From Scolanthus callimorphus (taxonomy: Eukaryota > Cnidaria > Anthozoa > Actiniaria > Edwardsiidae): 64,000 nucleotides of DNA. Where the stretch lies: the NCBI GenBank assembly GCA_033964015.1, contig CM066919.1, forward strand, positions 22,909,421-22,973,420, in the 5' to 3' direction. The position numbers and the translations under genes were made by a program. How positions within the stretch are numbered: position 1 is the first letter of the stretch; each line of letters begins with the position of its first letter. Shown here piece by piece: positions 239 through 64,000 of the stretch. The notes under the pieces were generated by a model, which searched no databases, was not told where the DNA came from, and was given only the letters and a program-made list of their open reading frames with translations.

Positions 239-1225
239 CTTGAGTTTGTTGAGTTGCTCCTCGGCTTGATCCGTATCCGTACCGAACACTCCTGGCGCAT
301 CCACCGCGTCATAAGCGCTCGCAAACACATCCTCCACGTGCGCGACCGTCACATGATACTCCTCTGCAGCCTGCTCCACGGCGGAGATCTTACTGTCTCT
401 AGTCTCGAGGTCAGCATTCAGCTTACGAAGCCTCTCCACTAAATCATCCACCTCTTGCTGCACGACACCTTGATCTCTCTCGGCGTCGCCTTTCAGGGAG
501 TCCACCTTGGATTCTAACTCCGGTAACCCCCCGAAGAGTTTGTCAGCTGAGGTTTTTATTTGATCCAGGAGTTCTCTCTGCTTAGCGATCTGCGCGCGGT
601 CAGATGTCAAAGGCTCGAACGCCTCAACCTGTTTCTCTGCGTCGTCGAGCATCGCGGAGAGCTTATCGATTTCCGATCTGAACTGCTGCGCTTCCGACTC
701 CACGGTGTCTAGTTTCTCCTGGCGCTCTGCAGCAGCGGTGTTGATCTTCTCGTACCCTTCTCGCATGGCGTCCATCTTGTCCTGTAGCGCCGCCTTCTCT
801 TTCGCATCCTCAAGATTCTCAAGCACGGCTTCTCCGGACTGCATTAACTTATCAAACACAGGCTGTTGTTGCGCGAGAGACTCCAGAAGCGCCTCGTTAT
901 CAATCTTCTGTCCCTTTACAGTGTCGTGAACAGCAGATATGGGATCCTGTGAAGTTACTAAGTTCTCGAAGTCGCCCAGCTTATTCATGAAGTCGTCGCA
1001 GGAGACTTGGAACTCCTGGCACTGCAAGAGCACACCTTGAAGCTTAGCTTGTCTGTCGGCCATTTTACGCGCGACTACATCCAAAGGCGCCGTTAGCCGG
1101 TTAAGCTCGCCTCGAATGTCCCGCACGACGCGCGGGTCTTCTTGGCTTGCCTCGATGATATCCTTACCCGTGTCTTCTAAACTGTCCAGGGTACCCTTGT
1201 ACTTAGCGATTTCGTCGCGCAGTTC
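239..1225 (-). CDS. Exon 45: three fused spectrin repeats (329 codons)
   Basis: Acceptor TTTTTCCTTGAAG, start ELRDEIAKYKGTLDSLED; contains RQAKLQGVLLQCQEFQVSCD and the linker SQDPISAVHDTVKGQK; ends EEQLNKLK at donor GTAGGC. The exon is 987 nt. The gene continues to the left of the window. Confidence 0.87.
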
Positions 1226-49200: not shown

Positions 49201-52200
49201 ACCGTGCAAGCCACGACGCCAGAGTGCAACATGTACACGCTACTAAACACCGTGCGAACTTTGAACAATACAACAGATGTGCATAACGAGAAATCGACAA
49301 GATGAGCACAGCGATGAATCCAACAACACAAGACTGATGCATCACATGTTTCTTATGTTTATTTTTAGAAATATTATCTTTTCATTAGACCTTTTCCTTT
49401 ATGCCGTTATAATTTCTCTTTTCCCCATTCATTATTTTCTTTGCATAACTATTTGTTTCAATAAGTTACGTTTATCCTATTCGGCGTAATACCTTACCAT
49501 AAAGCATGGTTAAGCTTCGTTTAAGATTAGAGAACCGTTTTAATTAACGTATCGCTTTAATGTTATTTATATTTTCACAGCGCGCACTTTGCCCCCTTAA
49601 CAAGACAAACAGCCCTAATACCTGAGTGATAAGCTGCTGAGCTGACGCGTCTTCGAGCTTCCAAGACACAGGCTCGAGTACCGATAATCTCTTCTCCATA
49701 TCCAGAAGCCAGAAGAGCAACTCCTCGAATACAAAATCAAACTGCAAATATTTTGCTGCATAAAGTACTATCAGCGATCGCATCTCGACTACTTGCTGGT
49801 ACAAAGCCTCGATTATTGTAATAAATTCCTCAGTAACACTGGTGTATTCTGCAGTTGTTGTGCGCGAGGTGATGTAAATTTTTTATCCTGGAAAAGAACG
49901 ATATCAGCCCAAGTTAAAGGTTCTAGCACTTCTAAAGGCTTCTCTTCCATCTCTTCAGGAGCGCTTTCAAGTGTTGCCTCCTCTGAACGTTTGAACACTT
50001 CAACTGTGACAGCTCCCGGTGTCACCACAAGCTCGGCTTGCTTTTCTTCATCCGGCTTAGCTTCTGACGTCTCTGTTTCCTTAGTTGGCTCTTCCGGAAC
50101 GGCCTCTAACTGTACCTTTTCCGGCTCTTCTTGAACAATAGTCTTTGTTGTAACAAAGCGCTTCACGACACGTCGCACTTTCTGTCCGGTTTCATCAGTA
50201 TACTCCTCCACGTATTCTTCATCGTGGGGGGCTTCGCCATCACCTATTTCAACAATACTGACAGGTACCGCGAATTCTTCAGGTTTAAAAACAGCTTCGA
50301 GTTTTAGAGAAGACGATAGCGGAGAGGTAGTTGTTGTCCAAACTCGTCCAGAAGAATCGACATACGCTTCTGAAAGTGAAACAGGTTTGGCCGACTCTAG
50401 AACCTCACCCGACGACCCAGGCTCGCCTTCATAAGCACCAGCGGGAAACCCTTTAGAAGAATCAAGGCCATGATGAATGATAGTTTTGGAAGTAACATAA
50501 TGTCTGGTCACACGTTTTACCCGGTTTCCTTTTTCGTCAATATATTCCTCAACTTGCTCTTCCATAGGAGGCAAGCTTGGATCAACTTGAACTGTGCTAA
50601 CAATGATTTCTTTGTCAGCTTCAAGTACGTCCTTTTGAGGCTCTTCTTCGAGATAAACAGGCTCTGCAGACTCGAAAACGATTGCCGGAAGTTGAACTTT
50701 TAACGGTTTAATAGATTTCGTAGCAACGTTTGAGGGTCCATCTACCGGAACCGTTCCTGCAGTAACGATAGTCGTAATTCTTTCTTCTTCAGGTAACGCA
50801 GATTCAGCAACATGATCTTCTGGTCTTAAAATGACTGTTTTAGTAGCAATGGTTTTTCGTACAATTCTTCTCACACGTCTGCCCTGTTCGTCAACAAATT
50901 CTTCCACCTCCCCGTCCGGTTCTTCCACCTCTTCCGTTGGGGTGGACCACTCAACGAGCTCGGGTTGTACCTCTTCTGGACCTACAATCATTCGCTTAGT
51001 GATCAAAGTCCTTTTAACTACTTTCCCAATTCTTCGTCCCTCCTCATCAATATAATCCTGCACCTCATCTCCATCACCGGGAACCTCTTGGGTATCAATA
51101 TCTATTCCTATTGGCTCAGCAGATTCGAGGATTGGGATAGTTGATAACTCAGTACCGTCTATCTGTTCTTTCCTAAAGGTTGTTAACGTTTTAGTTGTGA
51201 TGGTACGCTTTGCGATTCTCCTCGCAATTCGTCCCTCATTGTCAACAAATTCTTCCACCTCTCCTTCCACCTCTGTATCCTCCATAGGCTCGACAGTTTC
51301 TATAATGTCGGGAACGTCTTCAGTACTTTCGCCTTCTCTGATAGTTCTCGTCATCACTGTCTTTGTTGTCATTGTTCGTTTCACAACACGTCTCACAATT
51401 CTTCCTTCTTCATCGACGAATTCTTCTACATCCTCTTCGTGATCTTCTGGCTCCACTACTGTCGTTGAATCCAACTGATCAAGATCAGGAATTGGTTCCT
51501 TTTCAGGCGCTACGATTTCTGTTACTTCTTCCGTGACGGGAACACCTTCAATTTTCCTTCGTTCTTTCTTCGGTAATTCGATTACAATGTCCTCTTCAGG
51601 AATAACCTCATCCTTTTCCTCAGTCTCAACGGGTTCGGTACCATCCATTGTTTCCAAAGGAATGTACGGGCCTCTTCTCTTTTCTTCTACGGCGACGAAC
51701 TCTTCCACAACCACGGGACCAGAAGGAACATTTTCGGGTTTTCTTTCCTTTTTCACATAATCAAATAGGTCTTCATCTAGGTCAGTTGTTTGTGGTCCAG
51801 GCTCATGTTTGACTGGCTCAAGCCAATCTGGCAACACAGGCTGTCGTTCAACAGAAGTTTCTCCTATTTCTTCTTCCTGGAAAATAGGTTTTGTGGCTTT
51901 TCCCTTGGGTTCCTTCTCCAGTTCAACTGGGGCTGCAGATTCGAGGACGTATTTCGCCAGTTCTTCTCGAGGAACCTGTGACGTTTCGTCTCCTTGTACC
52001 ACCGTAATTTTCTTTGTAACAGTTTTTCGAACCCTTCTTCCTTCAACGTCAACATATTCTTCAACTCCTGCTTCCTCTTCATCTTCCGGTTTTTCTAGGG
52101 AGAATGGAACAGATATCTTAACTCCTCCTATCTGTTCTTTCCTAAAGGTTCTTAACGTTTTAGTTGTGATGATACGCTTTGCGATTCTCCTCACAATTCG

Positions 52201-55200
52201 TCCTTCATCGTCAACAAATTCTTCCACCTCTCCTTCCTCGTCCGCGGGAATTTCTGTATCCTCCATAGGCTCGACAGTTTCTAAAATATCGGGAACGTCT
52301 TCAGTACCTTCGCCTTCTCTGATAGTTCTCGTCATCACTGTTTTAGTTGTTATTGTTCGTTTCACATCACGTCTCACAATTCTTCCTTCTTCATCGACGA
52401 ATTCTTCTACATCCTCTTCGTGATCTTCTGGCTCCACTACTGTCGTTGAATCCAACTGATCAAGATCAGGAATTGGTTCCTTTTCAGGCGCAACCATTTC
52501 TGTTACTTCTTCCGTGACGGGACACCTTCAATTTTCCTTCGTTCTTTCTTCGGTAATTCGATTACAATGTCCTCTTCAGGAATAACCTCATCCTTTTCCT
52601 TAGTCTCAACGGTTCGGTACCATCCATTGTTTCCAAAGGAATGTACGGGCCTCTTCTCTTATCTTCTACGGCGACGAACTCTTCCACAACCACGGGACCA
52701 GAAGGAACATTTTCGGGTTTTCTTTCCTTTTTCACATAATCAAATAGGTCTTCATCTAAGTCAGTTGTTTGTGGTCCAGGCTCATGTTTGACTGGCTCAA
52801 GCCAATCTGGCAACACAGGCTGTCGTTCAACTGACGTTTCTCCTATTTCGTCTTCCTGGAAAATAGGTTTTGTGGCTCTTCCATCAGGTTCTTTCTCGAG
52901 TTCAACTGGGGCTGCAGATTCGAGGACGTATTTCGCTGGTTCTTCTTGAGGAACTTGTGACGTTTCATCTCCTTTTATCACCGGCGTCTTTGTAGTAACT
53001 GTCTTTCTAACAGTTTTTCGAACCCTTCTTCCTTCAACGTCAACATATTCTTCAACTCCTGCTTCCTCTTCCGGTTTTTCTAGAGAGAATGGAGCAGATA
53101 TCTCGACTCCTGTGCTTTCCTCATCACCCGGTCTTATCATCAATGTTTTCGTGACCAAAGTCCTTTTTACTATCCTCCTTACAACCCGCCCTTTGTCATC
53201 AACAAATTCCTCTACCTCTCCGTATTCCTCTTCGGGTTCTTCTGTTCCCTCTAGGGATTCAGTGGAGTCCAGTATTTCGGGGACAACATCTTCTGTTAAA
53301 GCTTCCCCTTCTCCGTTTATTTTTCTTGTAACAGTTTTTGTTGTGATGGTTCGCTGGACGATACGACTGGCAATTCTCCCTTCATCATCTACGAACTCTT
53401 CAACTATGTCCTCTTCGACCTCTTCAGGTAAGACTGTAGTCGGTTCCTCTGGTTCTACTGACTTAGGACCTGTTTCTGACGGTTGGTTGGTTCAACATCT
53501 TTAGGCCAATCGGGAAGTATCCTCTCTTGTGCTGAAGCTTCCTCAGGAACTTCTTCTGTAGGCTGAAGTCTCTGCACTTCTTTGTACGAGGGTAATTCTT
53601 CAAGAAAAACTGGTTCTGCGGATTCCATTACAAAGCCGGGCTCATCACCATCCTCGGGAACACCTTCACTGGTTTTAAGGACAACCGTTTTTGTGGTGAT
53701 TGTTTTTCGGACGATCCTTCTGACTGTTCGTCCCTCTTCATCAGCATATTCTTCAACCTCTTCTCCTTCATCGAGATCGATAGGTTCAAATTTCTCCTCT
53801 GCAGGCGATACTGCTTCTTCTACGGCATCTGGCATTTCTTCCTCGGGTCGCAACGTCAAAGTTTTCGTCACTAAAGTTCGTTTAACTATTCGTCTCACTA
53901 TTCGCCCTTCATTGTCAACAAATTCCTCTACCTCTCCCTCCTGACCCTCGGGAACTTCTACTCCCTCCAAAGGTTCAGCTGATTCAAGTATTTCAGGACC
54001 CCTGTCTTTCCCGTCTTCTTCTGGAGATCTAACCATTTCTGTTGTCATTGTTTTTGTTGTGAAGGTGCGTTTAACGATGCGTCTAACAGTCCTTCCTTCA
54101 TCGTCTACAAACTCTTCCACTTCATCTTCGGGCTCTTCTGTTTGCATTTTGGAAGAGTCTTCTCTGGGAATTTCAGGTTCGGTTGATTCTAATATCACCG
54201 GGCTCACGTCCTCAGAGGTGACCCTTTCTCCCTCTCTGATCGTCCTTGTCATTACTGTTTCAGTTGTGATGGTTCGCTTAACGATACGCCTGACAATTCT
54301 CCCTTCATCATCTACGAACTCTTCGACTATGTCCTCTTCGCCCTCTTCCGGCATGACCGTAGATACGTCCTCTTGTTCTACTGACTTAGGTCTTGTTTCT
54401 GACGTTTCAGTTGGGTCAACATCTTTAAGCCGTTCGGGAAGTACCCTATCTTGTCCTGAAGCTTCCTCAGGAACTTTTTCGGTAGGCTGAGGTCTTTGCA
54501 CATCTTTGTCAGAGGGTAATTCTTCAAGAGAAACTGGTTCTGTAGATTCTATTACAACGTCTGATCGATCACCGTCTTCGGGAACACTTTCACCTCTTTT
54601 CAGAACAACTGCTTTTGTGGTGATTGTTTTTCGGACGATCCTTCTGACTGTTCGTCCCTCTTCATCAACATATTCTTCAACCTCCTCTCTTTCATCGAGA
54701 TCGATAGGTTCAAATTTCTCCTCTGCAGGGGATACTGCTTCTTCTACGGCATCTGGCATTTCTTCCTCGGGTCGCAACGTCACAGTTTTGGTCACTAAAA
54801 CTATTCGCCCTTCATTATCAACAAATTCTTCTACCTCTCCCACCTGACCCTCGGGAACTTCTACTCCCTCCAAAGGTTCAGCTGATTCAAGTATTTCAGG
54901 AACCCTGTCTTTCCCGTCTTCTTCTGGAGATCTAACCATTTCTGTTGTCATTGTTTTTGTTGTGAAGGTGCGTTTAACGATGCGTCTCACAGTCCTTCCT
55001 TCATCGTCTACAAACTCTTCCACTTCGTCTTCGGACTCTTCCGTTGGCACTTCGGATGTCTTTTCGGTTGGAATTTCAGCTTCAACTGATTCTAGTATCA
55101 CCGGACTCACATCATCAGTTGTGACTCTTTCTCCCTTTCTGGTCGTCCTTGTCATTACCGTTTTAGTTGTGATGGTTCGCCTGACGATATGCCTGACAAT

Positions 55201-58200: not shown

Positions 58201-61200
58201 CTATTACAACGTCTGGTCGATCACCTTCTTCGGGAACACTTTCACCTGTTTTCAGGACAACTGTTTTGTGGTGATTGTTTTTCGGACGATCCTTCTGACT
58301 GTTCGTCCCTCTTCATCAACATATTCTTCAACCTCTTCTCCTTCATCGAGATCGATAGGTTCAAATTTCTCCTCTGCAGGCGATACTGCTTCTTCTACGG
58401 CATCTGGCATTTCTTCCTCGGGTCGCAACGTCAAAGTTTTCGTCACTAAAGTTCGTTGAACTATTCTTCTCACTATTCGCCCTTCATTATCAACAAATTC
58501 CTCTACCTCTCCCTCCTGACCCTCGGGAACTTCTACTCCCTCCAAAGGTTCAGCTGATTCAAGTATTTCAGGACCCCTTTCTTTCCCGTCTTCTTCTGGG
58601 GATCTAACCATTTCTGTTGTCATTGCTTTTGTTGTGAAGGTGCGTTTAACGATGCGTCTCACAGTCCTTCCTTCATCGTCTACAAACTCTTCCACTTCGT
58701 CTTCGGACTCTTCCGTTGGCACTTCGGAAGTCTTTTCTGTTGGAATTTCAGCTTCAACTGATTCTAGTATCACCGGACTCACATCATCAGTTGTGACTCT
58801 TTCTCCCTTTCTGATCGTCCTTGTCATTACCGTTTTAGTTGTGATGGTTCGCTTGACGATACGCCTGACAATTCTCCCTTCATCATCTACGAACTCTTCA
58901 ACTATGTCCTCTTCGCCCTCTTCAGGTAAGACCGTAGTCGGTCCCTCTGGTTCTACTGACTTAGGACCTGTTTCTGACGGTTTGGTTGGTTCAACATCTT
59001 TAGGCCAATCGGGAAGTATCCTCTCTTGTGCTGAAGCTTCCTCAGGAACTTCTTCTGTAGGCTGAGGTCTCTGCACTTCTTTGTCCGAGGGTAATTCTTC
59101 AAGAGAAACTGGTTCTGCGGATTCCATTACAAAGCCGGGCTCATCACCTTCCTCGGGAACACCTTCACTGGTTTTAAGGACAACCGTTTTTGTGGTGATT
59201 GTTTTTCGGACGATCCTTCTGACTGTTCGTCCCTCTTCATCAACATATTCTTCAACCTCTTCTCCTTCATCGAGATCGATAGGTTCAACTCTCTGCTCTG
59301 CAGGTGGTAGCCCTTCTTCTACGGCATCTTGCTTTTGTTCTCGGGTCGCAACGTCACAGTTTTGGTCACAAAAGTTCGTTGAACTATTCTTCTCACTATT
59401 CGCCCTTCATTATCAACAAATTCCTCTACTTCTCCCTCCTGACCCTCGGGAACTTCTACTCCCTCCAAAGGTTCAGCTGATTCAAATATTTCAGGAACCC
59501 TGTCTTTTCCGTCTTCTTCTGGAGATCTAACCATTTCTGTTGTCATTGTCTTTGTTGTGATGGTGCGTTTAACGATGCGTCTCACAGTCCTTCCTTCATC
59601 ATCTACAAACTCTTCCACTTCGTCTTCGGACTCTTCTGTTGGTACTTCGGAAGTCTTTTCGGTTGGAATTTCAACTTCAACTGATTCTAGTATCACCGGA
59701 CTCACGTCATCAGTTATGACTCTTTCTCCCTCTGTGATCGTCCTTGTCATTAGCGTTTCAGTTGTGATGGTTCGCTTGACGATACGCCTTACAATTCTCC
59801 CCTCATCATCTACGAACTCTTCGACTATGTCCTCTTCGCCCTCTTCCGGCATGACCGTAGATACGTCCTCTGGTTCTACTGACTTAGGTCCTGTTTCTGA
59901 CGCGTCAGTTGGTTCAACAACTTTAGGCCAATCAGGAAGTATTCTCTCTTGTCCTGTAACTTCTTCAGACGGTAATTCTTCAAGAGAAATTGGTTCAGTG
60001 GATTCCATAACTTCAAGCTGCCTTGGAATTTCGTCAAGTTCTAATGATTCATCAGGGTGCGCGGTAACTGTTTTGGTCATAACAGTGTTCCTGACAACTC
60101 TTCTAACTAGTCTGCCTTCGCTGTCACCATATTCCTCGATCTTCTCCTCTACGCCCTCTTCTGACTGTGCACCCTCTATTTCTTTCATCGTACCTTCATC
60201 TTTACCACCAAATTCGTCCATTTCTCCTTCAACTTCCGGAATTTCTTCTATTGCTACCGGCTCTGCTGATTCCAGAATCTCAGGTGCATCCTTATCCGTT
60301 GTAATCGACTTACGTGTCTCTTCTGGCTCTTGCGGCTCGCCATCATCAGTGACATCAAACGCAGGATTATAGAATCCCATTTCTTCGTAAGGCGTCAGTT
60401 TCGTTAAGCGTGAATCCTGAATGAGCTCCAACGGTAACGAGTCGACGTCATGTTCGGGCTCTGCACTAGGTTCTACAACAGGCCTGACTGGCTCCACGGC
60501 GTCTTCAAGTTCATCTAAATCAGGAATAGCTACCTCTCTTTGTAAAACAGTTTGAGACACACTTTCGACTATAGGAGATGCCTGAGGTGTTACCGGGGAA
60601 GGTTTCGGTCGAACATCGTAATCAAGAACCTCCTCAATAGATTTTCCATCATATACCTTTTTCTCATAAGGTATAAAACCAACAGGAATTCTCACCTTTC
60701 GCTTTATATTGACCACAACGATCTCCTCAGAGAATTCATCTTCGACGTACTCTTCTTCTTCCTCTGTTTCTTCATCTTCCTCCTCCTCTACCTCCTCCTC
60801 TTCTTCTTTTTCTTCCTCTTTTCCTTTTGTCATCAACAACGCTTCATCGGGTATAGTTTTTGCAGGAAATGATTCTGCCACTTCCTTTGTCGTAACAATG
60901 GGTTTATCGGGTTCTGGTGCAGGTTGTTTTTTATCCAGAGTATCAAATTCTGGAATAAAGACTGTCCGTTGGGTCGAAATGAACTGAAATGCCTCTTCCT
61001 TTATAGGCGAACCTTCGGGGACTCTTTTCTTCCTTGGAACAACAGGTATATCCAATACATCATCATTAATTGGTTCGTGCCGTTTACGCTCTGGAGGAAA
61101 ACCTGTTTCATCGTCAAAGAGGATAACATTAAAGCGCTCGTCTTCGTGCATTGCAATAATTTCTTCCATCACTTGAGGGCCTTCTGGAGTTGTCTTCGGA

Positions 61201-64000
61201 GTGACTGACGTCCTAATTTCTACCTGCAGAACATCATCCGAAATTGTCTCTGGTTTTGGGAGTGGTGAATGGTCGACCAGCCAATCAGGTAGATTAATGC
61301 GTCGCTCCGCTGATATTGGAACAACCTCAGTATCCATTGGAACAGGCTCGGTAGTTTCTTTCGATGAACCCTCTTCGACATAGTCTTGTGGTCCTTTGAT
61401 TAGAAACACAGGTTCTGCAGATTCCAAAATTCGAGGCACTTCTTTTTCTTCTGGAATGACGACATCTGGTTGAGGTTTCGTCACAAACGTCGACCTCACA
61501 TCAGTTAGCATCGTCTGTGCAGAGGTCGTGACAGGTTCACCTTGAATCACATGTTCCTCTCGTGTTGTTATCCCATTTGCTGTTACAGTTCTGACTGTAG
61601 TTGTCTTGGACGTTTTCATGGTAGTCCGCTTCACTGTCGTTGTACGCCTTACAATATTACCTTCTTCGTCCACGAATTCTTCGAACTCAGGTTCTTGAGA
61701 AGCTGACTGAGGTACTTCAACCCGAAAGCTCTCCAGATCACTCTTTCTAACAGGCTGAACAGTAAATGGGTGCACAACAGATAACGACTCTTCTTCGGGG
61801 GCTTCTATTTGCATTGGTTTTCCATTTTGCGCGACCGTAAGATGTTTTGTAACAACTGTACGCCTTATGATGCGTCTAACATTACGCCCTTCCTCGTCCA
61901 CATATTCTTCAACCTCAGTATCTGAAGGTATTTCTACTGTCTCAGGAACTTCCTCTGTTGGATAACTCACTTCCTCTGCTTCGCCCTCTAGCGTCTGTCC
62001 GCGTTTCTCAATGACAACTCTTTTAGTCGTGACAGTGCGCTTCACAATTCTTCTCACCACTCGCCCTTCCTCATCAACATATTCTTCATATTCCGTATCC
62101 GGAGGCAACTCTTGTTCATCCGTTTTCGGTGTCAGGGCAACTTCAAACGCCTGTAGGTCGCTTTTCCTGACTGGCGTAACGGTAAAAGGCTGCTTATCTA
62201 CAGTGCTAAGTTGAACTTCTTGTCTTTCTTCATCTCCCTTGTCACCTCGCATGACAAATGCCTTTGTCGTAACGCTTCGACTTACTATTTGTCTCCTAAT
62301 GTTTCCCTCCTCGTCCACGTACTCCTCAACTTCGGACTCCTGAGGCATCTCGTCAGGAACTACAATTTCCGTTCTTTGAGAAACAGGCACGCTAAAGCTA
62401 TCTAAAGCGCTTCTCTTTACAGTTAGTACGTTAAACGTAGGCTCTGGTTTGGGCTCCAGCTCTTCTTCTGGTTGTTCAATTTCTTTGAGTTGGCCCTCTT
62501 TATTGAGAAAGAAGACTTTTGTCACAATAGTACGTTTAACAATCCTTCGTACCACGCGACCTTGCTCGTCGGTGACTTCTTCAAGCTCATAATCAGGAGG
62601 CAAGTCTTCAGTTTCTACTGCTTGTGGGTCCTCCACGGGCTGCCCAAATGCATCAATGACGATCCACGTTCTTACAACTGTTCGTGTTACAACTTTTCTT
62701 ACAATACGCCCCTCCTGATCTGTAAATTCTTCTACCTCTGAGTCAGGGGACAGCACCCGTTGCTGTGTAGGAGGAAGTGATACTTCAAAGGCTTTTAGGT
62801 CACGTTTTCTGACCGGTGTGACACTAATAGTCTCTGTTATATCAAGTCCTTCTGGCTTTGGCTTGCTGTGTAATGCAACTAGAAGCTCAGTCCTTTCTTC
62901 CGGTGAAATATCCACCTCAGCAGGTTGTCCATCTTCATTTACGGTAAACACTTTAACCGTAATGTAACGCTTGTAAACTCGTCGCGCTGTGCGACCCTGT
63001 TCATCAGTAAATTCCTCTACTTCAGAGTCCTCCGGTATCTCGTCCATTGCTTGCGGATCTTTAGCTGGCCGTCCGAATTCATCAATAACAATCCACGTCC
63101 GAGTTACAGTCCGTGTAGTAACTACTCTTACAATACGACCTTGCTTGTCTAAAAACTCCTCGATCTCAGGTGGTTCTTCCGGCAGAAACACAGGTTCAGC
63201 AGACTCCAAAATTCGAGGGGCTTCTTCAGGTTCCTTCGACAATGTAATATCGAATGTTTGCAAGTCGCGTTTCATGACAGGTGTAACAACGAAAGGCTGA
63301 GCAGCGATGGGCTTTTCAGGAGGAGCCACAGAAACTGTTACATCTTCACCCGTAACACGTTCTGAACTGTCAGGTTTCTGCTTCAGTGGCTCAATAGTTT
63401 TAAGTTCTTCTTCGGGGTGCTCCATGGCTTCTAGTAGCTTAGCCTCTTCTTCTGCAGAAACATCAACTTCAACTGGTACATCATGCTCATCAAGAACGTA
63501 CACTTTTATGACCACAACACGTTTGTAAATCCTTCGAACAATACGACCTTGGTCATCAGTAATCTCTTCTACTTCACAGTCTTTGGGAAGTGCTTCACAA
63601 TCAGGTGCACGCGAATCTTGCACTCGCTGTCCAAATTCATCCACAACAATCCATGTTCGAATTATACTTTTCGTGATGACTTTCTTTACAATGCGCCCCT
63701 GCTTGTCAACAAATTGATTTTCGATGGAGTCAAGTGAACCTGGCTCATCTTCAGGTTTTCCAGCCAGAGTCACTTCGAAGGTTTGTAAGTCACTTTTCTT
63801 AACCGGAGTAACACTGAAAGTTTGAGTTACTGTTGCCGTATCAGGCAATTTAACAGTAAGTATTGCTTGTTTATCCTTGAGAGAGTCTGAACTGTCAGGC
63901 TCTTGCCTCATGGGCTCGACACTTTTAAGTTCTTGACCAGATTGTTCCATAGCCTCCAGTAGTTTAGCTTGTTCGTCCTGAGGGACATCAGCCTGGACTG
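239..64000 (-). CDS. Giant spectraplakin-like cytolinker gene, partial at both ends (overview)
   Basis: Overview entry; exons are numbered below in transcription order within the window. Seen: one minus-strand series of exons with consistent GT-AG borders and almost always phase 0. Exon 1 is a giant repeat exon; exons 2-45 encode about 54 spectrin repeats (heptad-rich, W and PW positions, PVS/PIS..P linkers, PGEER-like loops). Known: spectraplakins (MACF1, dystonin, Shot) carry CH domains, a plakin domain, sometimes a giant isoform-specific exon, a spectrin rod, then EF-hands and a GAS2 domain, and link actin to microtubules. Repeats here recall MACF1/dystonin rod repeats, for example the PSAEY..VK.Q, QQAK and PGEEKR-type segments. 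Inferred: the same family. A nesprin/Msp300-like giant protein is the main alternative, because 54 repeats is far above the roughly 20-plus of vertebrate spectraplakins. Gene ends are outside the window. Confidence 0.68.
1548..2534 (-). CDS. Exon 44: three fused spectrin repeats (329 codons)
   Basis: Starts TIQDAVASLQPVLTQLLK; contains SEPGPDRDALAQKLHDTT, TRWNNVKDKTEERQ and FKPWLSSAEKRL, and in its third repeat a LEEWLPKVQEIVASQEPIS linker. Exactly 987 nt, as is exon 45. Confidence 0.88.
3126..3458 (-). CDS. Exon 43: spectrin repeat (111 codons)
   Basis: Starts LLKDDIAKHKAVLQKAEN; contains LDSLTGKVDQRQARLQDV and the linker EPVSGLHETAKEQSQDHK. The LLKDD start has no ATG, so the exon is longer than any ATG-led frame in it. 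Donor GTTAGG. Confidence 0.86.
3459..5803. other. Intron, 2.3 kb
   Basis: Between exons 42 and 43. It holds the inverted-repeat element at 3576-3728 and, next to it, a GC-rich patch (3745-3850). The rest is AT-rich with short meaningless open frames. Confidence 0.65.
3576..3728. mobile_element. Small inverted-repeat element (MITE-like)
   Basis: The left end ATACCAAATCAGTGAATA is matched by the reverse complement TATTCTACTGATTTGGTAT at the right end, with one extra base. Inside lies TCTGATTGGTTC. About 150 bp, non-coding. Confidence 0.6.
5804..6136 (-). CDS. Exon 42: spectrin repeat (111 codons)
   Basis: Starts DLLDSLEQQKPGVDSLGD; contains LQELEEWLPEVKERV and the linker QQPISTEPETVRQQLEEAR. 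The linker closely recalls ISTQPEAVKQQLEE-type linkers of MACF1. Donor GTGAGT. Confidence 0.87.
6137..6968. other. Intron, 0.8 kb, nothing recognised
   Basis: Between exons 41 and 42. AT-rich, no repeat or conserved frame seen. Confidence 0.6.
6969..10591 (-). CDS. Exon 41: eleven fused spectrin repeats, with one frame break
   Basis: 3623 nt between TTTCAG acceptor and GTATGT donor, one short of 3624 (1208 codons, close to 11 x 110). It starts SMQKELAKRRAVLDNME. The frame breaks near 7892-7915: upstream reads HDLEKLK, downstream must shift to read DVGHRLVESCDNDPNVY. Clear repeats include TEPGEDRRSMEKKLSDLN, ERWGKVKYKANERDEH, FEPWLTSAERAL and MEPVSSDPEKLRAQVKE. This is by far the longest intron-free piece of the rod. 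Confidence 0.88.
10830..11132. mobile_element. Inverted-repeat element with long G/C runs
   Basis: Left: a run of about 20 G, then CTGATAGGGATGCTCGTCG and TATTTTTTAGGGG. Right: TTTTTTAGGGTA, then CGACGAGCACCCCTATCA and runs of C and G of 14-15 bases. The two sides are reverse complements. A related fragment (TCAACGAGCACCCCCACCC) lies near 14358. Confidence 0.6.
11323..11655 (-). CDS. Exon 40: spectrin repeat (111 codons)
   Basis: Starts GLINSLEVQKPEVQHAVK; contains EMRELELWVNEAAETT and ends KVVNARLKQIE at donor GTTAGT. Standard 333 nt, phase 0. Confidence 0.85.
11810..12059 (-). CDS. Exon 39: rest of a spectrin repeat (250 nt)
   Basis: Begins with the last base of a split Ser codon, then NAPDDLYVVEAQAQYL, and ends QALAHTK at donor GTAAGG. 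Contains DMVGCDVDKAKQALAHTK as the linker. Its acceptor is a CTCACAG. Confidence 0.82.
12579..12982 (-). CDS. Exon 38: spectrin repeat plus start of the next (404 nt)
   Basis: Starts MLQEDVKETNELAEELIA; contains AEPSPERDALEQRLQDVK, TRWDSVMAKTTDREQE and FTAWLTGIDKKL; ends SDVI plus a split Ser codon (AG|T) at donor GTGAGG. Exons 38+39+40 total 987 nt, the exact size of exons 44 and 45. Confidence 0.84.
13395..13619 (-). CDS. Exon 37: second part of a spectrin repeat (75 codons)
   Basis: Starts VVSTLSRAQVKMDRIAHR; contains KLQSTILECQDIQVSLADF and the linker MRPVSAVHDTLKEQEREFK. Same length and same repeat position as exon 24. Confidence 0.83.
13850..13960. mobile_element. Short inverted-repeat element (MITE-like)
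   Basis: The left end ATCATCAACCGGGAGCCTTT is matched in reverse complement at the right end with about two mismatches. A relative (GCGCAAAGGTTCCCGGTTGA) lies near 30048-30067, and a weaker one near 15095. Confidence 0.6.
14654..14830 (-). CDS. Exon 36: spectrin linker and start of next repeat (59 codons)
   Basis: Starts VIDALEPVSTEPEKVKSQ and ends EETVTVE at donor GTATAA. Joined to exon 35 and exon 37 in phase 0. The sequence across the joins follows the standard repeat pattern. Confidence 0.8.
15297..16211 (-). CDS. Exon 35: almost three spectrin repeats (305 codons)
   Basis: Starts PIADDIHKHEPVFDAIK; contains SEPGKERDRVEHRMSH, TRWDNLQKDSAARQ and IVPWLMVAEKKL; ends LQTWFAAIVQ at donor GTAATG. 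It runs into the next repeat up to its W helix, which continues in exon 36. Confidence 0.86.
16420..16893 (-). CDS. Exon 34: end of one spectrin repeat and all of the next (158 codons)
   Basis: Starts VVELLDSYDTNITKVEED; contains LQPVSSDPDEVQKQILE, then SKEPLDVLLSSIGDRQNEL and FLVWLCSVEEKLADE; ends ELKREHQ at donor GTGAGA. Confidence 0.85.
17207..17383 (-). CDS. Exon 33: first part of a spectrin repeat (59 codons)
   Basis: Starts KSVAVLANRKPVLKDLNK and ends RVIFMDK at donor GTAAGG. Exons 33-37 (59, 158, 305, 59 and 75 codons) total 656 codons, close to six repeats, with introns at varied places but always between codons. Confidence 0.8.
17837..18175 (-). CDS. Exon 32: spectrin repeat (113 codons)
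   Basis: Starts ILQDEIQAHKPDHQAID; contains VTRRYEALKGDVNKQ; ends HEDLSKVK at donor GTAAGA. Phase 0 borders. Confidence 0.83.
18176..19141. other. Intron, 1 kb, nothing recognised
   Basis: Between exons 31 and 32. AT-rich. Only a small hairpin (CTACGCTAAAAATAGCGTAG) at about 18302-18321 was noted. Confidence 0.55.
19142..19471 (-). CDS. Exon 31: spectrin repeat (110 codons)
   Basis: Starts ALKKDLDQHAQSYDHVMK; contains LPPGRERNKLEEKL, AWEELSEKVIQRREQ and FISWLGDAESRL; ends RVQETLE at donor GTGAGT. The PPGRER loop and W positions are of MACF1/dystonin style. Confidence 0.86.
19632..19964 (-). CDS. Exon 30: spectrin repeat (111 codons)
   Basis: Starts ELSEEVQQKVALLEQAKQ; contains NLQSALLHSQDLKDSMEEL and RWMTSADNLYNLLGPVSA; ends DQEEKLE at donor GTACTA. 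Standard 333 nt. Confidence 0.85.
20198..20530 (-). CDS. Exon 29: spectrin repeat (111 codons)
   Basis: Starts AAINELAESDKRVHLIRR; contains GLEKWIPGARERVDEEKP and ends DEIKTQLDDLK at donor GTAAGA. Standard 333 nt. Confidence 0.86.
21029..21355 (-). CDS. Exon 28: spectrin repeat (109 codons)
   Basis: Starts TFQDEVANQLASLAVAEQ; contains LNSARTPLIELAEKLKDR and ends GESELGKVE at donor GTAGGT. Phase 0 borders. Confidence 0.84.
21591..21911 (-). CDS. Exon 27: spectrin repeat (107 codons)
   Basis: Starts ALQDDVKSLEGEVQDIAK and ends KQQLEEVE at donor GTGAGT. The linker is EPIHHDEDVIKQQLEEVE. Confidence 0.83.
22439..22789 (-). CDS. Exon 26: spectrin repeat (117 codons)
   Basis: Starts FLQQFLQEDIEGYRPVYK; contains NRWSKINEFYQDRRK; ends EGIDVEAGKKELAAMK at donor GTATGG. 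Slightly long. Confidence 0.83.
23056..23385 (-). CDS. Exon 25: spectrin repeat (110 codons)
   Basis: Starts GVFLEISIQEVVFDDIIR; contains SEPGDHKDRLKQSL and SRWNDVLQRATTRNDQ; ends REHALLK at donor GTAAGG. Phase 0 borders. Confidence 0.83.
23468..23655. mobile_element. Inverted-repeat element with a near-perfect inner palindrome
   Basis: The 15-base arms GGGACAACATTACGC and GCGTAATGTTGTCCC are separated by four bases near 23475-23508. The right arm, extended (GTCCCATTTCAGATCACGTT), recurs in reverse complement near 23620-23653 with minor changes. Confidence 0.65.
23947..24171 (-). CDS. Exon 24: second part of a spectrin repeat (75 codons)
   Basis: Starts VRDKLDETQQPFDRLHAQ; contains RLQNVVLQGQDFELSLDEL and the linker EPVSAKYEKAFQQKQDHE. 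Another 225 nt exon, at 13395-13619, starts at the matching repeat position. Confidence 0.83.
24260..24367 (-). CDS. Exon 23: first part of a spectrin repeat (36 codons)
   Basis: Small exon reading DINEQFISCRPKVEKMEE and ending ALVAE at donor GTAACG. 108 nt plus exon 24 (225 nt) is 333 nt, exactly one standard repeat. Found by borders and phase. Confidence 0.78.
24702..25013 (-). CDS. Exon 22: spectrin repeat (104 codons)
   Basis: Starts ELLGDLENRRANLEVVEV; contains RVESIALFMQLCHEVEEF and the linker LRPISEDSEAAKEQLQETK. Phase 0 borders. A little shorter than the 110-residue norm. Confidence 0.83.
25444..25782 (-). CDS. Exon 21: spectrin repeat (113 codons)
   Basis: Starts DFKTAVESQRSNQKLVN and ends KEELQKIE at donor GTAAAT. 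The linker is EPSVGLDADKGKEELQKIE. Confidence 0.84.
26104..26272. repeat. Tandem (CCCCTAG)n, about 24 units
   Basis: An almost perfect 7 bp repeat over about 168 bp in the intron between exons 20 and 21. It differs from the metazoan telomere repeat (CCCTAA). No function inferred. Confidence 0.97.
26429..26758 (-). CDS. Exon 20: spectrin repeat (110 codons)
   Basis: Starts ALNQEVVAKQPVIEHIER; contains MNPGPDRDVLKYKLADM, RRYGNVKEKAADRKA and FVGFLDESEDKL; ends KRAGVK with donor GTAAGT. Phase 0 borders. Confidence 0.85.
27245..27574 (-). CDS. Exon 19: spectrin repeat (110 codons)
   Basis: Starts ELHNLLLEKRPLLATAED and ends GKQKTEQQ at donor GTAGAG. The segment EEKEKQQAKQEPPLLNMAK resembles a DDKQSQQAK-type segment I recall in MACF1. 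Confidence 0.83.
28272..28663. mobile_element. Inverted-repeat element, ~390 bp
   Basis: The left end AAGGCCAACAACCCCAGGGT and following TACTCGGATAT are matched in reverse complement by ATATCCGAGTACTCCCCCTG GGCCAACAACCTT at the right. The inside has repeated TATTTTGGG(G)TA-like words on both strands. Confidence 0.7.
28710..29042 (-). CDS. Exon 18: spectrin repeat (111 codons)
   Basis: Starts TLLSALENAKEDLDAVN; contains FQGALNEFESWLPEAM and the linker FKPISAEPEELKKQLAEVE at its end. Standard 333 nt length, phase 0 borders (CTGCAG acceptor, GTAAAC donor). Confidence 0.87.
29608..29793 (-). CDS. Exon 17: second part of a spectrin repeat (62 codons)
   Basis: Starts VMEEALLDKKKKIEATQQ and ends ARADRDTLQ at donor GTAAGA. 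Contains the TAVGTDLDKARADRDTL linker. Confidence 0.8.
30224..30376 (-). CDS. Exon 16: first part of a spectrin repeat (51 codons)
   Basis: Starts ALQEDLANHSPVYQFFLS and ends NHEVSNRWQ at donor GTACTG. It has no ATG-led open frame of its own length, but joins exon 17 (62 codons) in phase 0 to make a 113-residue repeat. Confidence 0.78.
30791..31050. mobile_element. Inverted-repeat element, family with 40119-40252 (copy 1)
   Basis: The ends GAGCACAACTTTCTATGACT and its reverse complement flank GATGTTGGGAGAGACAC and its reverse complement. The central part is an inverted pair around ATTTTACAATGTTC. The block AGCGGGGGAGAACCAT near 30869 also occurs, inverted, just outside copy 2. Confidence 0.75.
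31205..31533 (-). CDS. Exon 15: spectrin repeat with a one-base frame break
   Basis: 329 nt between acceptor TTCAAG and donor GTACGG, one short of 330. It starts VVVKEVDLLNPISNYIF, contains EAPPGDEKDTLENRV and RHKVIEAV, then must shift frame near 31338-31348 to read PSAQNYDDAYRALSVWMKDA and end NKQKSTLM. The shifted reading restores the PSA..YDDA...W pattern seen in other repeats, so a missing base is likely. Confidence 0.78.
31870..32202 (-). CDS. Exon 14: spectrin repeat (111 codons)
   Basis: Starts NLEEEVVIHRRKIETMEE and ends KEQKTSHE at donor GTAAGT. Its linker AKPVSAEYVVIKEQK closely recalls the PSAEYKVVK-type linker of MACF1, one of the better reasons for the spectraplakin call. Confidence 0.85.
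32413..32458. repeat. Two direct copies of a 23 bp word
   Basis: CATTTAGATATCTGAGTACG with trailing CAA occurs twice back to back in an intron. Confidence 0.85.
32954..33238 (-). CDS. Exon 13: short spectrin repeat (95 codons)
   Basis: Starts NMLDVLETTEIKLVRLSK and ends DQLQHVQ at donor GTGGGT. About 15 residues shorter than neighbours and poorly conserved: it lacks the usual PVS linker. It is placed by phase, borders and position between good repeats. Confidence 0.72.
33320..33705. repeat. Degenerate tandem repeat, about three copies, in an intron
   Basis: Shared words are GCGCTT.GGA.GATAGTACT, GAGAAAAGATGCA, AAGGATCCAG, TGGCAATTCCTATGAATGTG and ATCACTGAGAAAATG. They occur near 33320-33434, in part near 33484-33561, and in diverged form near 33588-33705. 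Confidence 0.75.
33763..34101 (-). CDS. Exon 12: spectrin repeat (113 codons)
   Basis: Starts DLRAAIENYRPVYQQL and ends KQELDKVN at donor GTAAGT. Contains the EPAYGTDLGQVKQELDKV linker, a GTDL form like that of MACF1-type repeats. Confidence 0.83.
34529..34864 (-). CDS. Exon 11: spectrin repeat (112 codons)
   Basis: Starts VLMEDIKAHAPVHEGIQ; contains APTQADRASLESRL and RWRSVNKAANDR, then NNLLAWLSKDE; ends QKQTTMK. Phase 0 borders. The PTQADR loop occupies the place of PGEER loops typical of MACF1-type repeats. Confidence 0.85.
35035..35443. mobile_element. Large inverted repeat, ~409 bp (foldback/MITE-like)
   Basis: The ends ATAGGCCTTTATCACGCAAT are exact reverse complements. The arms continue inwards for about 170 bp with moderate divergence (for example AATTCTACACATCCATAT against ATACGGATGTGTAGAATT). 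There is a central gap of about 60 bp. Confidence 0.8.
35652..35912. mobile_element. Inverted-repeat element, ~260 bp
   Basis: Ends TATAGAGCGGTTTTCACATG and the reverse complement CATGTGAAATCCGCTCTATA. Inside are CAATTGCAATTG and AGCCAATCAGAAT-like words. Non-coding, in the intron between exons 10 and 11. Confidence 0.72.
36045..36257 (-). CDS. Exon 10: second part of a spectrin repeat (71 codons)
   Basis: Starts IQSVTDRYIEVEDKLRDK and ends KKQNKEQQ at donor GTAGGA. Contains FEQTIEDFETWLNQTE. Completes the 111-residue repeat begun in exon 9. Confidence 0.8.
36325..36444 (-). CDS. Exon 9: first part of a spectrin repeat (40 codons)
   Basis: Small exon between CTAG acceptor and GTACAT donor, reading ATYMALCQLKTMLASLQ and ending ELTKK. 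It has no independent start codon and is recognised by its frame, borders and fit: 120 nt plus the 213 nt of exon 10 gives 333 nt, the standard length for one repeat. Confidence 0.75.
36967..37140 (-). CDS. Exon 8: second part of a spectrin repeat (58 codons)
   Basis: Starts VKKELQDQKKALDSDN and ends KQLLNQVN at donor GTAAGT. The linker is GELTEDPEQVKQLLNQ, equivalent to the PVSTEPE-type linkers elsewhere. Confidence 0.78.
37165..37572. repeat. CAA/CAG-type trinucleotide microsatellite
   Basis: About 400 bp of mixed AACAAC, CAGCAA and AACAGC words in the intron between exons 7 and 8. It gives glutamine-rich or cysteine-rich fake frames on either strand. Confidence 0.95.
37959..38108 (-). CDS. 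Exon 7: first part of a spectrin repeat (50 codons)
   Basis: Starts VALYVVDQRQSDVDKVNA and ends NNRYDK. With exon 8 (58 codons) it forms one 108-residue repeat. The split falls at the RYD-K point in the middle of the repeat. Confidence 0.75.
38161..38475. mobile_element. Inverted-repeat element, ~315 bp
   Basis: Ends AGGGTGTGTTTCTT and AAGAAACGCACCCT (one mismatch). Inside, many GAATCCGGATTCG-like words and GTTTCTTT repeat on both strands. No flanking target duplication was convincing. Confidence 0.68.
38614..38931 (-). CDS. Exon 6: spectrin repeat (106 codons)
   Basis: Starts ALKADVDEHKPTYYVIE, contains the EPEGPKRNEV loop and RWGAVN, and ends ELQAVK at donor GTTAGC. Phase 0 at both borders. 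Confidence 0.83.
39025..39304 (-). CDS. Exon 5: second part of a spectrin repeat (280 nt)
   Basis: Begins with the last base of a split Arg codon, then TPDGRKESEVIPSEV, and ends QQEALD at donor GTGAGT. It contains the linker RAKPLNHNVDDLKEQQEALD. The repeat is longer than its neighbours because of the NSNSRTPDGRKES insertion around the intron. Confidence 0.78.
39584..39681 (-). CDS. Exon 4: first part of a spectrin repeat (98 nt)
   Basis: Begins ELHNELEQAKPLLSTA and ends in a split codon (TCT AG|G) at donor GTAAGC. With exon 5 (280 nt) it makes 378 nt, 126 codons. This is one of only two places in the rod where an intron interrupts a codon. Confidence 0.75.
40119..40252. mobile_element. Inverted-repeat element, family with 30791-31050 (copy 2)
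   Basis: AGCATTAGAGCACAACTTTC and its exact reverse complement form the ends, with TTGGGAGAGACACTCGAAAC and its partner inside. It is nearly a full palindrome. Flanking GCGCGCTCTGATTGGTCC (40041) matches an inverted sequence beside copy 1 (31076-31097). Confidence 0.78.
40275..40594 (-). CDS. Exon 3: spectrin repeat with a one-base frame break
   Basis: Acceptor TTCACAG, donor GTAAGG. The exon is 320 nt, one short of 321 (107 codons), while its neighbours are phase 0. It starts GLQEKLDTRAHA and must change frame near 40552-40566 to read DSAGQNLLALESPEVDLRG and onward to RIAELE. This is best read as one missing base. It is the first exon shared by the long isoform and the alternative-start isoform. 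Confidence 0.78.
40595..43075. other. Intron between alternative first exon and exon 3, nothing recognised
   Basis: AT-rich, 2.5 kb. No repeat pair, conserved frame or RNA gene seen. Short frames near 41061, 41436 and 42497 lack support. Confidence 0.6.
43076..43726 (-). CDS. Alternative first exon, 217 codons, novel N-terminus
   Basis: The ATG at 43724-43726 begins MDSDLETLDEGLGSECSSDC. An in-frame TAA lies about eight codons upstream with no acceptor between, so translation should start here. The exon ends RQKPRAQ with a strong donor (GTAAGT) in phase 0, able to join exon 3. The peptide is Ser/Thr-rich and basic in the middle, then has a W/Y-rich end (TITVWRGEL, FVYVPSWYFED). I recognise no domain. 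It implies a shorter isoform lacking the giant exon but carrying the spectrin rod. MACF1/dystonin and Shot are known to use several alternative N-termini. Confidence 0.7.
43727..44060 (-). promoter_or_regulatory. Presumed promoter/5'UTR region of the alternative first exon
   Basis: Placed only by logic: the 43076-43726 exon has its own start codon and an upstream in-frame stop, so transcription should start just upstream (to the right). I see no convincing TATA box. The stretch has several CpG-containing segments and is richer in GC than the intron on its left. Confidence 0.35.
44061..47231. other. Intron section with no recognised gene
   Basis: AT-rich sequence between the alternative first exon and exon 2. 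Short open frames on both strands (for example near 45608 and 46507) lack repeat homology, splice context or codon bias. The only structure seen is the inverted-repeat element at 47044-47199, listed separately. Confidence 0.6.
47044..47199. mobile_element. Inverted-repeat element, ~155 bp
   Basis: ATGCATTCTCGTACCCAGAG CTCC at the left is matched by GGAGAGCTCTGGATACGAGA ATGC in reverse complement at the right. It sits just downstream of the donor of exon 2. Confidence 0.72.
47232..47558 (-). CDS. Exon 2: spectrin repeat (109 codons, phase 0/0)
   Basis: Acceptor ...CTACAG and donor GTAGGT are clear. The peptide begins KLNDDLIDHKPIIENF and ends AEIRQIK. It has the usual repeat layout used throughout this rod: the exon starts in the helix before the D-KP segment and ends just after the next linker. 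It joins exon 1 on its 5' side and exon 3 on its 3' side in the long isoform. Confidence 0.82.
48090..48330. repeat. Degenerate tandem repeat, units ~40-50 bp
   Basis: Repeated words of the form CCC(T)TTGGAAA(T/C)TC and CCTGTAGAAATTCCAGG (five or so) recur along the stretch, with changes. Confidence 0.55.
48895..49140. repeat. Minisatellite with ACGGGAAACCATGG words
   Basis: CGTGCAAACTATGAACAC occurs twice (near 48900 and 48967). CACGGGAAACCATGG(A/T)CA then recurs about six times with small changes, up to 49140. Confidence 0.8.
49622..49850 (-). other. End of giant exon: change into spectrin-like sequence
   Basis: After a shift of one frame near 49845-49880 the sequence reads EYTSVTEEFITIIEALYQQV and continues through FEELLFWLLDMEKRLSVLEP to the donor. 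This is helical, with a W-containing spectrin-type segment. The start resembles in style the YTxLVTL-type helix at the plakin-to-rod junction of spectraplakins, which is my inference. Without the shift the giant frame would stop at 49813. The shift may be another missing base. An unrecognised short intron ending at the CTGCAG near 49848-49853 is also possible. Confidence 0.55.
49622..64000 (-). CDS. Exon 1: giant repeat exon, at least 14.4 kb, open at the 5' side
   Basis: Encodes about 4800 residues in one open stretch once eight apparent one-base deletions are allowed for. It holds about 51 copies of a motif of the form EE(F/Y)(V/T)D(E/D)(E/Q)GR-V-RR(I/V)-KR followed by TTKT and basic residues. 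Between copies lie ILESAEPV-(F/S)LEE, LPDW(L/P), IPDLD and TPVRKSDL segments. The composition is strongly charged, so the region is probably extended and largely disordered. The donor at the left edge (CAG|GTATTA) follows a spectrin-like segment. I know no named domain with this repeat. Its place just before the spectrin rod matches the position of the plakin-repeat giant exon of long MACF1/dystonin isoforms, but no plakin-repeat signature (GIIDP, EAIRRG) was seen. The acceptor lies beyond 64000. Confidence 0.75.
51150..53105 (-). repeat. Tandem duplication of ~0.98 kb inside the giant exon
   Basis: The block with TFRKEQI, EEFVD(N/D)EGRI, TVMTRTIREGE, PIPDLDQLDSTTVVEPEDHE, IPLETMDGTEP, LPDWLEPVKHEPGPQ and EEYVDVEGRRVRK occurs twice. 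For example, the PIPDLDQLD segment lies near 51481 and 52462. The two copies are nearly identical, with a small in-frame length difference (SADEEGE-like insertion near 52240). The right copy carries two of the apparent one-base deletions (near 52520 and 52613). Confidence 0.85.
53430..59930 (-). repeat. Tandem array: seven ~903-924 bp coding units, two alternating types
   Basis: Equivalent points recur near 54059, 54962, 55886, 56808, 57711, 58634 and 59557, so the spacings are 903, 924, 922, 903, 923 and 923 bp. Each unit of about 301-308 codons holds four EEFVD-type motifs in fixed order: DDEGRIV..TVMTRTIR; DDEGRTV..TMTTEMVRSPEEDG; NEGRIV..LVTKT; EEYVDEEGRTV..TVVLK. These are followed by ESAEPVSLEELPSDK and a LPDWPKDVEP-type linker. 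Units alternate between a type with ILESVEAEIPTEKTSEVP and a type with ILESTEPEIPREDSSKMQ. Copies look over 90% alike by eye. Seven of the eleven frame breaks fall here or in the neighbouring 981 bp duplication. Confidence 0.9.
60000..64000 (-). other. N-terminal diverged section of the giant exon with TPVRKSDL modules
   Basis: This section stays open for over 4 kb without a frame break. Repeats are diverged. Roughly ten copies of the EE-(F/V/I)-(T/V)-D-(Q/E)-GR motif alternate with six copies of a (F)-V-TPV(R/K)K(S/R)DLQ-F-(E/D)V segment. Some motif copies end in RTWIVIDEFG and others in (V/T)KVF/TKRVV, so two subclasses alternate (RTWIV.DEFGQP followed by KVF-LNEDGQP). ESAEPV and LPDWL/IPEFD/IPDLD segments appear towards the left. 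No known function. Confidence 0.7.
60720..60830 (-). other. Glutamate-rich acidic tract in the giant exon
   Basis: About 35 residues, mostly E with some D and V, starting around KGKEEEKEEEEEVEEEED and ending in YVEDEFSEE. The plus strand shows CTC/TCC/TTC triplet runs. The reading frame stays open across it. It separates the diverged N-terminal section from the tandem array side. Such tracts are usually disordered and can change length by slippage. Confidence 0.85.

What the first reader, a model, noticed from the sequence alone, without database searches (positions are those of the whole stretch)
49622..64000. Giant exon encoding an unnamed repeat family at the head of a spectraplakin-like rod
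One exon of at least 14.4 kb encodes about 51 copies of an acidic-then-basic motif (EEFVDEEGR followed by V-RR-V-KRT-TTKT). It lies just before the spectrin rod, where long MACF1/dystonin isoforms have their plakin-repeat giant exon, yet no plakin-repeat signature is visible. It may be a lineage-specific module replacing plakin repeats, perhaps a long flexible or filament-binding segment. This is the best candidate for an undescribed element here. The motif count and lack of plakin repeats are read from the sequence; the comparison of position is family knowledge; the role is inference.
Basis: partly seen in the sequence, partly recalled or inferred. Interest (0 to 1): 0.82.

Follow-up and report, generated by a model that had tools for sequence, protein, structure and literature searches.

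The report
Giant hairpin-repeat exon in anemone-type spectraplakin
A giant cell-skeleton linker gene of a sea-anemone-like animal carries one 16.5-kilobase exon encoding about 60 copies of a charged hairpin motif, shared with the sea anemone Nematostella and apparently undescribed, at a point of the protein where its vertebrate relatives carry no such insert.

Summary
On the minus strand, 64000-49622 encodes 51 motif copies (profile count; none in 100 shuffles). The exon reaches 66099 outside the window (16,478 nt, 60 copies, phase 0 at both ends) and ends in a spectrin segment. At least eight one-base frameshifts in the window (ten in the exon) look like assembly errors. The gene is a full spectraplakin of about 148 kb: CH, plakin domain, spectrin repeats, this exon, long rod, EF-hands, GAS2. 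Two Nematostella models and 11 unnamed ORFs carry the motif; nine of the 13 keep the repeat-to-spectrin join. None of 120 fetched MACF1, dystonin, dystrophin, nesprin and Clytia proteins does. A double motif is predicted as two beta-hairpins (pLDDT 76) without a known fold match; an array unit models poorly. Two caveats on 'unnamed': DUF2866 resembles part of the motif weakly per copy, and PF27288, listed on six relatives, could not be read. Best mechanism (inferred, 0.45): an optional, extensible tether with many hairpin docking sites.

The parts
49622..64000 (-). Window part of the giant exon (whole exon 66099-49622, continues outside the window); phase 0 at both ends
   Evidence: ORFs and splice sites; conserved join in 9 of 13 relatives
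60201..64000 (-). Divergent 5' part with double motifs and conserved blocks (DLKAFEVS, ILESAEPVFL, NVILFDD, NPAFD); aligned with Nematostella P0122
   Evidence: structure model
53414..59834 (-). Array of seven ~308-aa units (U1-U7, four motifs each), 88-98% identical DNA, two alternating classes
49888..53413 (-). 3' part: more divergent motif copies and linkers; 51438-49888 (six copies) aligned with Nematostella
49622..49882 (-). Spectrin-type segment at the 3' end of the giant exon, then GT donor
   Evidence: 62% identical to Nematostella, 40-46% to eight unnamed ORFs; Pfam alone lists no family for it
62856..63170 (-). Double-motif unit modelled at pLDDT 76 (strands 2-7/13-28 and 49-55/61-77/83-86, helix 90-102)
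239..47558 (-). Spectrin rod (window part) in a crude gene model, about 5,870 aa, mostly one repeat per ~330-nt exon; a few modelled pieces (15 nt, 2 nt) are surely spurious
   Evidence: gene model; Pfam (eight references, spectrin above cut-off in the four long ones); relatives
43043..43753 (-). Conserved non-spectrin exon beginning near MDSDLETLDEGLGSECSSDCG; possible alternative first exon or rod insert
   Evidence: no Pfam match

Best explanation
SHOWN: one 16.5-kb, phase-0/0 exon of a complete spectraplakin gene (CH, plakin domain, spectrin repeats, this exon, long spectrin rod, EF-hands, GAS2) of a cnidarian close to Nematostella encodes about 60 copies of a roughly 30-residue motif. PREDICTED: acidic strand, turn (DEEGR) and basic, threonine-rich strand form a beta-hairpin; linkers rich in E, V, T and P are mostly disordered. 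INFERRED: the exon can be included or skipped without frame loss. When included, it splits the rod with an extensible tether of about 5,500 residues carrying many hairpin docking sites, so that the actin-binding head and microtubule-binding tail stay coupled in cells that stretch strongly. Motifs are kept by selection; the number of units changes by unequal duplication in each lineage.
For: Gene anatomy. Phase 0/0. Motif 59-77% identical to Nematostella against 39-43% in linkers. Hairpins: all four motifs of an array unit come out as strand pairs, at low confidence; the double motif at pLDDT 76. Composition over 4,758 residues: P+E+V+K 45%, charged 39%, net -0.13 per residue. Lineage-specific amplification: window units 88-98% identical in DNA; unit U5 is 54-56% identical in protein to two Nematostella units. 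Mean dN 0.068 against dS 0.144 over 21 unit pairs. In this genome both repeat queries match this exon only (34 matches, 3 matches).
Against: No RNA, expression, binding or mechanical data. The array-unit model has mean pLDDT 35, so true disorder and poor modelling are not told apart. The double-motif model rests on 7 rows and comes from the 5' part, not the array. Skipping of the exon is not shown. Motif conservation would equally fit a filament-binding role. Ten frameshifts in the exon and none needed in the modelled rod are unexplained if assembly errors fall at random, though repeats assemble worse.
Confidence: 0.45

Rival explanations
1. Filament-binding module: the repeated basic strands bind microtubules, actin or lamin-type filaments multivalently, doing for this animal what plakin repeats do for bilaterian intermediate filaments, although from another position.
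For: Each motif has a basic strand; motif conserved more than linkers; PMC9145010 reports plectin repeats for deuterostome and protostome spectraplakins; no PF00681 match in the own genome (weak: no positive control).
Against: The region as a whole is acidic (-0.13 per residue); position differs from the plakin-repeat slot; no binding partner known; the same paper notes plectin repeats in honey bee although arthropods lack cytoplasmic intermediate filaments, so the link of such modules to filaments is loose.
Confidence: 0.3
2. Neutral spacer: the array is low-constraint filler that grows and shrinks by unequal crossing-over; only length, if anything, matters.
For: Units near-identical within the species and different in layout in Nematostella.
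Against: Motif identity 59-77% against 39-43% in linkers across species; dN below dS; open frames of 1,651-2,785 aa in the 11 unnamed relatives.
Confidence: 0.18
3. Diverged plakin repeats: the motif is a plakin-repeat descendant no longer recognised.
For: Giant exon in a spectraplakin; plakin repeats also start with a short hairpin (recalled).
Against: No PF00681 at E <= 1 in six pieces; modelled as hairpin pairs without the two-helix part of a plakin repeat (recalled fold); different insertion point.
Confidence: 0.04
4. Pseudogene or mis-assembly: the frameshifts mean the exon is dead or wrongly put together.
For: At least ten frameshifts in the exon; none needed in the modelled rod.
Against: Repeat text continues in register on both sides of each shift; the five array shifts are single-base losses; the Nematostella models are open over the same region; motif constraint.
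Confidence: 0.03

Closest known systems
MACF1/dystonin/Shot spectraplakins with the plakin-repeat giant exon
   Same: Same gene family and order CH-CH, plakin domain, spectrin rod, EF-hand, GAS2; a large repeat-coding insert between spectrin repeats, present or absent by isoform
   Different: Repeat not found by the motif profile in 16 such proteins, 6 of them listed with PF00681; inserted about seven spectrin repeats further downstream
Nematostella vectensis predicted proteins P0122 and P0125
   Same: Same motif, linkers, array and repeat-to-spectrin join; P0125 carries CH, SH3_10 and spectrin; both listed with a 604,691-base contig. PMC9145010 speaks of a 'truncated' Nematostella spectraplakin; that it means P0125 is my guess
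   Different: The two models split inside the repeats; array unit has three motifs instead of four
DUF2866 (PF11065, function unknown)
   Same: About 27 of its 63 profile positions match the motif; above its cut-off on 3 of 6 pieces (43.6, 35.8, 34.4 bits)
   Different: Single copies score 13.2, 17.5, 16.0 and one not at all (four tested), below the cut-off of 25; so the piece scores come from adding up copies
Titin PEVK segment (recalled, not tested)
   Same: P-, E-, V-, K-rich, long, probably flexible
   Different: Here regular hairpin motifs, T- and R-rich strands, spectraplakin context
ANC-1 (nesprin) tandem repeats of about 900 aa (recalled)
   Same: Giant cytolinker with near-identical tandem units
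   Different: Rod here is spectraplakin-type, nesprin-1 scores far lower

Membership tests
Spectraplakin (MACF1/dystonin/Shot) | Spectrin rod of spectraplakin type | tested here: met
   as above (120 of 153 matches listed); by phmmer Clytia is first and a MACF1-type protein second in 12 of 12 rod segments against nine chosen proteins (by blastp one segment has MACF1 first)
Spectraplakin (MACF1/dystonin/Shot) | N-terminal tandem CH and plakin domain with SH3 | tested here: met
   Nematostella P0125 has PF00307 x2 and PF17902; its exons match collinearly at window coordinates 125317-70638, 39-97% identity. Single exons of this genome: CH E 4.9e-5 and 2.6e-4, SH3_10 E 2.7e-4, each just under the whole-domain cut-off; one of three CH exons tested gave nothing
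Spectraplakin (MACF1/dystonin/Shot) | C-terminal EF-hands and GAS2 | tested here: met
   Modelled C-terminus: GAS2 74.3 bits, EF-hand_1 37.7, EF-hand_7 31.9; GAS2 exon alone 76.6 bits. A first guess for the EF-hand exon, L018:8943-9299, gave no EF-hand
Plakin (plectin) repeat | PF00681 match | tested here: not met
   None at E <= 1 in six pieces; none in the genome, a search without positive control
Plakin (plectin) repeat | Same insertion point as the MACF1/DST plakin-repeat exon | tested here: not met
   Maps to Nematostella residue 1660 in three of three, repeats after 2460; alignment there about 20% identical and gapped by about 270 residues, so the register is approximate
Nesprin (SYNE/Msp300/ANC-1) | Rod closest to nesprin; KASH at the end | tested here: not met
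   PF25034 is matched above cut-off on three of eight references, but listed MACF1 and dystrophin proteins carry it too; nesprin-1 ranks far below MACF1; KASH not searched
DUF2866 (PF11065) | Score above the curated cut-off | tested here: inconclusive
   Above it for 3 of 6 pieces, below it for every single copy tested (4); only about 27 of 63 positions
Known fold in the PDB | Significant structural match of the double motif | tested here: inconclusive
PF27288 (newer Pfam entry) | Match of the repeat to a named domain | not testable with these tools
   Listed on 6 of 13 relatives, not in the local Pfam, no paper holds the accession

The most novel reading that the evidence does not exclude
Cnidarian spectraplakins independently acquired a giant optional exon encoding a new beta-hairpin repeat family that makes the protein a spring-like, multivalent cytolinker, a parallel solution to the bilaterian plakin-repeat exon but at another point of the rod and with another fold.
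Probability: 0.32. Interest if true: 0.78.

Novelty: new variant of a known kind. Interest (0 to 1): 0.6.

Why it matters
It offers an explanation of why the Nematostella spectraplakin looks truncated (the two gene models break inside this array), adds a repeat family to a well-studied cytolinker family, and shows giant repeat inserts at two different points of the same rod. PMC9145010 reports plectin repeats for deuterostome and protostome spectraplakins, and PMC4829535 states that cytoplasmic intermediate filaments are thought to have arisen in the bilaterian lineage; so the question of what giant spectraplakins bound or did outside Bilateria becomes directly testable in a laboratory anemone.

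Tried and rejected
Nesprin was considered first because PF25034 (Spectrin_SYNE1) passes its cut-off on rod exons; rejected by scores. Pfam hits on the repeats: DUF2866 recurs in five of six pieces (three above cut-off) and is reported above; DUF3124, DJC28_CD, Hormone_3, HTH_TbsP_C, DUF6831, Xol-1_N, Fer2_4 and others are unrelated to each other, several above cut-off, mostly without a single stretch passing, and are read as sums over repeats. First protein search gave none of 3,344 candidates at E <= 0.001; from the tool's length rule it covered about 5,500-17,500 aa. Foldseek, VIA-align and PDB sequence searches gave nothing usable. PF00681 and PF00932 searches of the own genome were empty; since an animal genome should hold a lamin tail (PF00932), such empties prove little. 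PF00038 gave six matches at three loci; whether they are lamins is not settled. PF17902 in the own genome did not complete. NCBIfam gave nothing of use. A blastp self-comparison of the rod returned nothing; the lag analysis replaced it. Tandem Repeats Finder missed the array because its longest period is 500. On rechecking, my frameshift count rose from six to at least eight in the window, and the odds of the novel case went from 0.35 to 0.32 because of DUF2866.

Full report
What is there. The feature lies on the minus strand. Six stop-free pieces in changing frames cover 63998-49813, and the repeat text carries on in register across each change of frame. Compared with the other array units, the five shifts inside the array (near 59332, 58263, 56355, 56273 and 53484) are losses of one base; two more lie near 52.6-52.5 kb and one near 49.9 kb, where the frame passes into a spectrin-type segment ending at a GT donor at 49622. 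With two upstream there are at least ten, and the exon length fits ten single-base losses. I read them as assembly errors, because the modelled rod needed none; this is not proved. A profile made from 44 pattern-found copies counts 51 copies at 8 bits or more in the window; 100 shuffles of all six pieces gave none at 8 bits and 4 at 5 bits.

Beyond the window. The own genome (597 Mb, 302 contigs; window = C9:22909421-22973420) was searched with a 150-aa piece of the array: all 34 matches lie in C9:22959773-22975399, that is, in this exon (55 candidates scored). A second query, a composite of the repeat of relative P0131, gave three matches, all in this exon. With 130 kb of flanks fetched, the exon runs from an acceptor at 66099 to the donor at 49622: 16,478 nt, 60 copies at 8 bits or more, phase 0 at both ends. 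The preceding exon ends ...MAPRRQ|GT near 70634.

Which gene. The rod exon 10591-7877 scores best against an uncharacterised Clytia protein (838 bits), then 16 MACF1/dystonin-type proteins (318-484, one of them unnamed), dystrophins (up to 184) and nesprin-1 (136); 945 candidates were scored and 120 of 153 matches listed. By phmmer Clytia ranks first and a MACF1-type protein second in 12 of 12 rod segments, against nine chosen proteins. Nematostella P0125 (two CH domains, SH3_10, spectrin) matches exon by exon and collinearly from window coordinate 125317 to 70638; MACF1/dystonin C-termini give a collinear chain from -16234 to -22640 among many weaker rod cross-matches. The modelled C-terminus holds EF-hands and GAS2. 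A crude gene model gives about 2,470 + 5,490 + 5,870 + 2,920, roughly 16,700 residues; small exons may be missed or false.

Relatives of the repeat. A search with the first 1,559 residues found none among 3,344 candidates in the longer length range, but 13 among 7,974 scored in the shorter one: two Nematostella proteins and 11 unnamed ORFs. All 13 hold 9-32 motif copies; of the 120 proteins from the rod search none reaches 5 bits (best 2.9). Nine of 13 (P0122 and eight unnamed ORFs) keep the same repeat-to-spectrin join; P0123, P0125, P0131 and P0133 do not show it. The exon architecture is therefore not an oddity of one assembly. P0131 and P0133 carry repeats of mostly 95-103 residues in an unknown context. 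Whether the unnamed ORFs are cnidarian is not stated by the source; I infer it.

Names. Among Pfam matches to the repeats only DUF2866 recurs: five of six pieces, above cut-off in three, over about 27 of 63 positions. Four single copies gave 13.2, 17.5, 16.0 bits and nothing, cut-off 25, and one of seven double-motif rows E 0.005. I take it as a weak resemblance added up over copies, not as membership. PF27288 on six relatives could not be read.

Evolution. Seven units of about 308 aa make the array; DNA identity 88-98%, with U2/U4/U6 and U3/U5/U7 as two classes. Nematostella has three-motif units; U5 is 54-56% identical to two of them. Over 21 unit pairs mean dN is 0.068 and dS 0.144, a weak sign of constraint among related copies. 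Between the species motif identity is 156/263 against 316/810 in linkers in the 5' part, 92/145 against 113/292 in the 3' part and 66/86 against 60/138 in the unit.

Position. Comparing long and short isoforms of three vertebrate proteins locates the plakin-repeat insertion. In a joint alignment with Nematostella it falls at residue 1660 in all three, while the spectrin part ends near 2460 where the repeats begin: about 800 residues, or seven spectrin repeats, later. Identity there is about 20%, and the alignment has a gap of about 270 residues at that very place, so the register is approximate. Local matches agree (Nematostella 1623-2436 with skate 3905-4762, just after the skate insert ending at 3678; and 1571-2179 with scorpion 4182-4812, whose insert borders I did not determine), but many other cross-matches of spectrin repeats exist. 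This genome follows Nematostella collinearly there.

Literature. In PMC9145010 (section 7, first of two parts, and passages) the Nematostella spectraplakin is called truncated; plectin repeats are reported for deuterostome and protostome spectraplakins and said not to be detected outside Eumetazoa, so their absence in cnidarians is my reading. This repeat is not mentioned in the parts I read. PMC4829535 (passages only) states that cytoplasmic intermediate filaments are thought to have arisen in the bilaterian lineage. Searches (listings only) showed no paper on this repeat; most subscription papers are not held.

Verdict. A real, conserved giant repeat exon, apparently undescribed, in a known protein family. 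Anatomy is near certain; the tether mechanism is an inference at 0.45, filament binding its main rival at 0.3.

Noticed in passing
window 43753-43043 (-): Conserved non-spectrin exon (MDSDLETLDEGLGSECSSDCG...) aligned with Nematostella P0122 near residues 2920-3129; a methionine at the conserved start suggests an alternative first exon of a short rod isoform.
   Followed up: partly
window 27574-239 (-): The spectrin rod shows a period of four repeats: mean pairwise score 94.5 at lag 4, 79.4 at lag 8 and 78.3 at lag 12, against 49-64 at the other lags up to 15; the rod seems to have grown by four-repeat blocks.
   Followed up: partly
relatives P0123, P0124, P0126-P0129: Precomputed Pfam entry PF27288 sits on six of the 13 relatives; it is not in the local Pfam and may or may not describe this repeat.
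   Followed up: partly
G000:C14:2464070-2495016 and C6:32045772-32046029: Six matches at three loci to the intermediate-filament family PF00038 in this genome (lower bound); whether they are lamins was not settled (empty).
   Followed up: partly
relatives P0131 and P0133: Unnamed ORFs built almost wholly of 95-103-residue repeats that start with the same motif and add a second beta-like half (VVYVIDGKPV...); gene context unknown.
   Followed up: partly
window 37070-37570: Low-complexity stretch translating to runs of C, V, A or N, Q, T in several frames.
   Followed up: no
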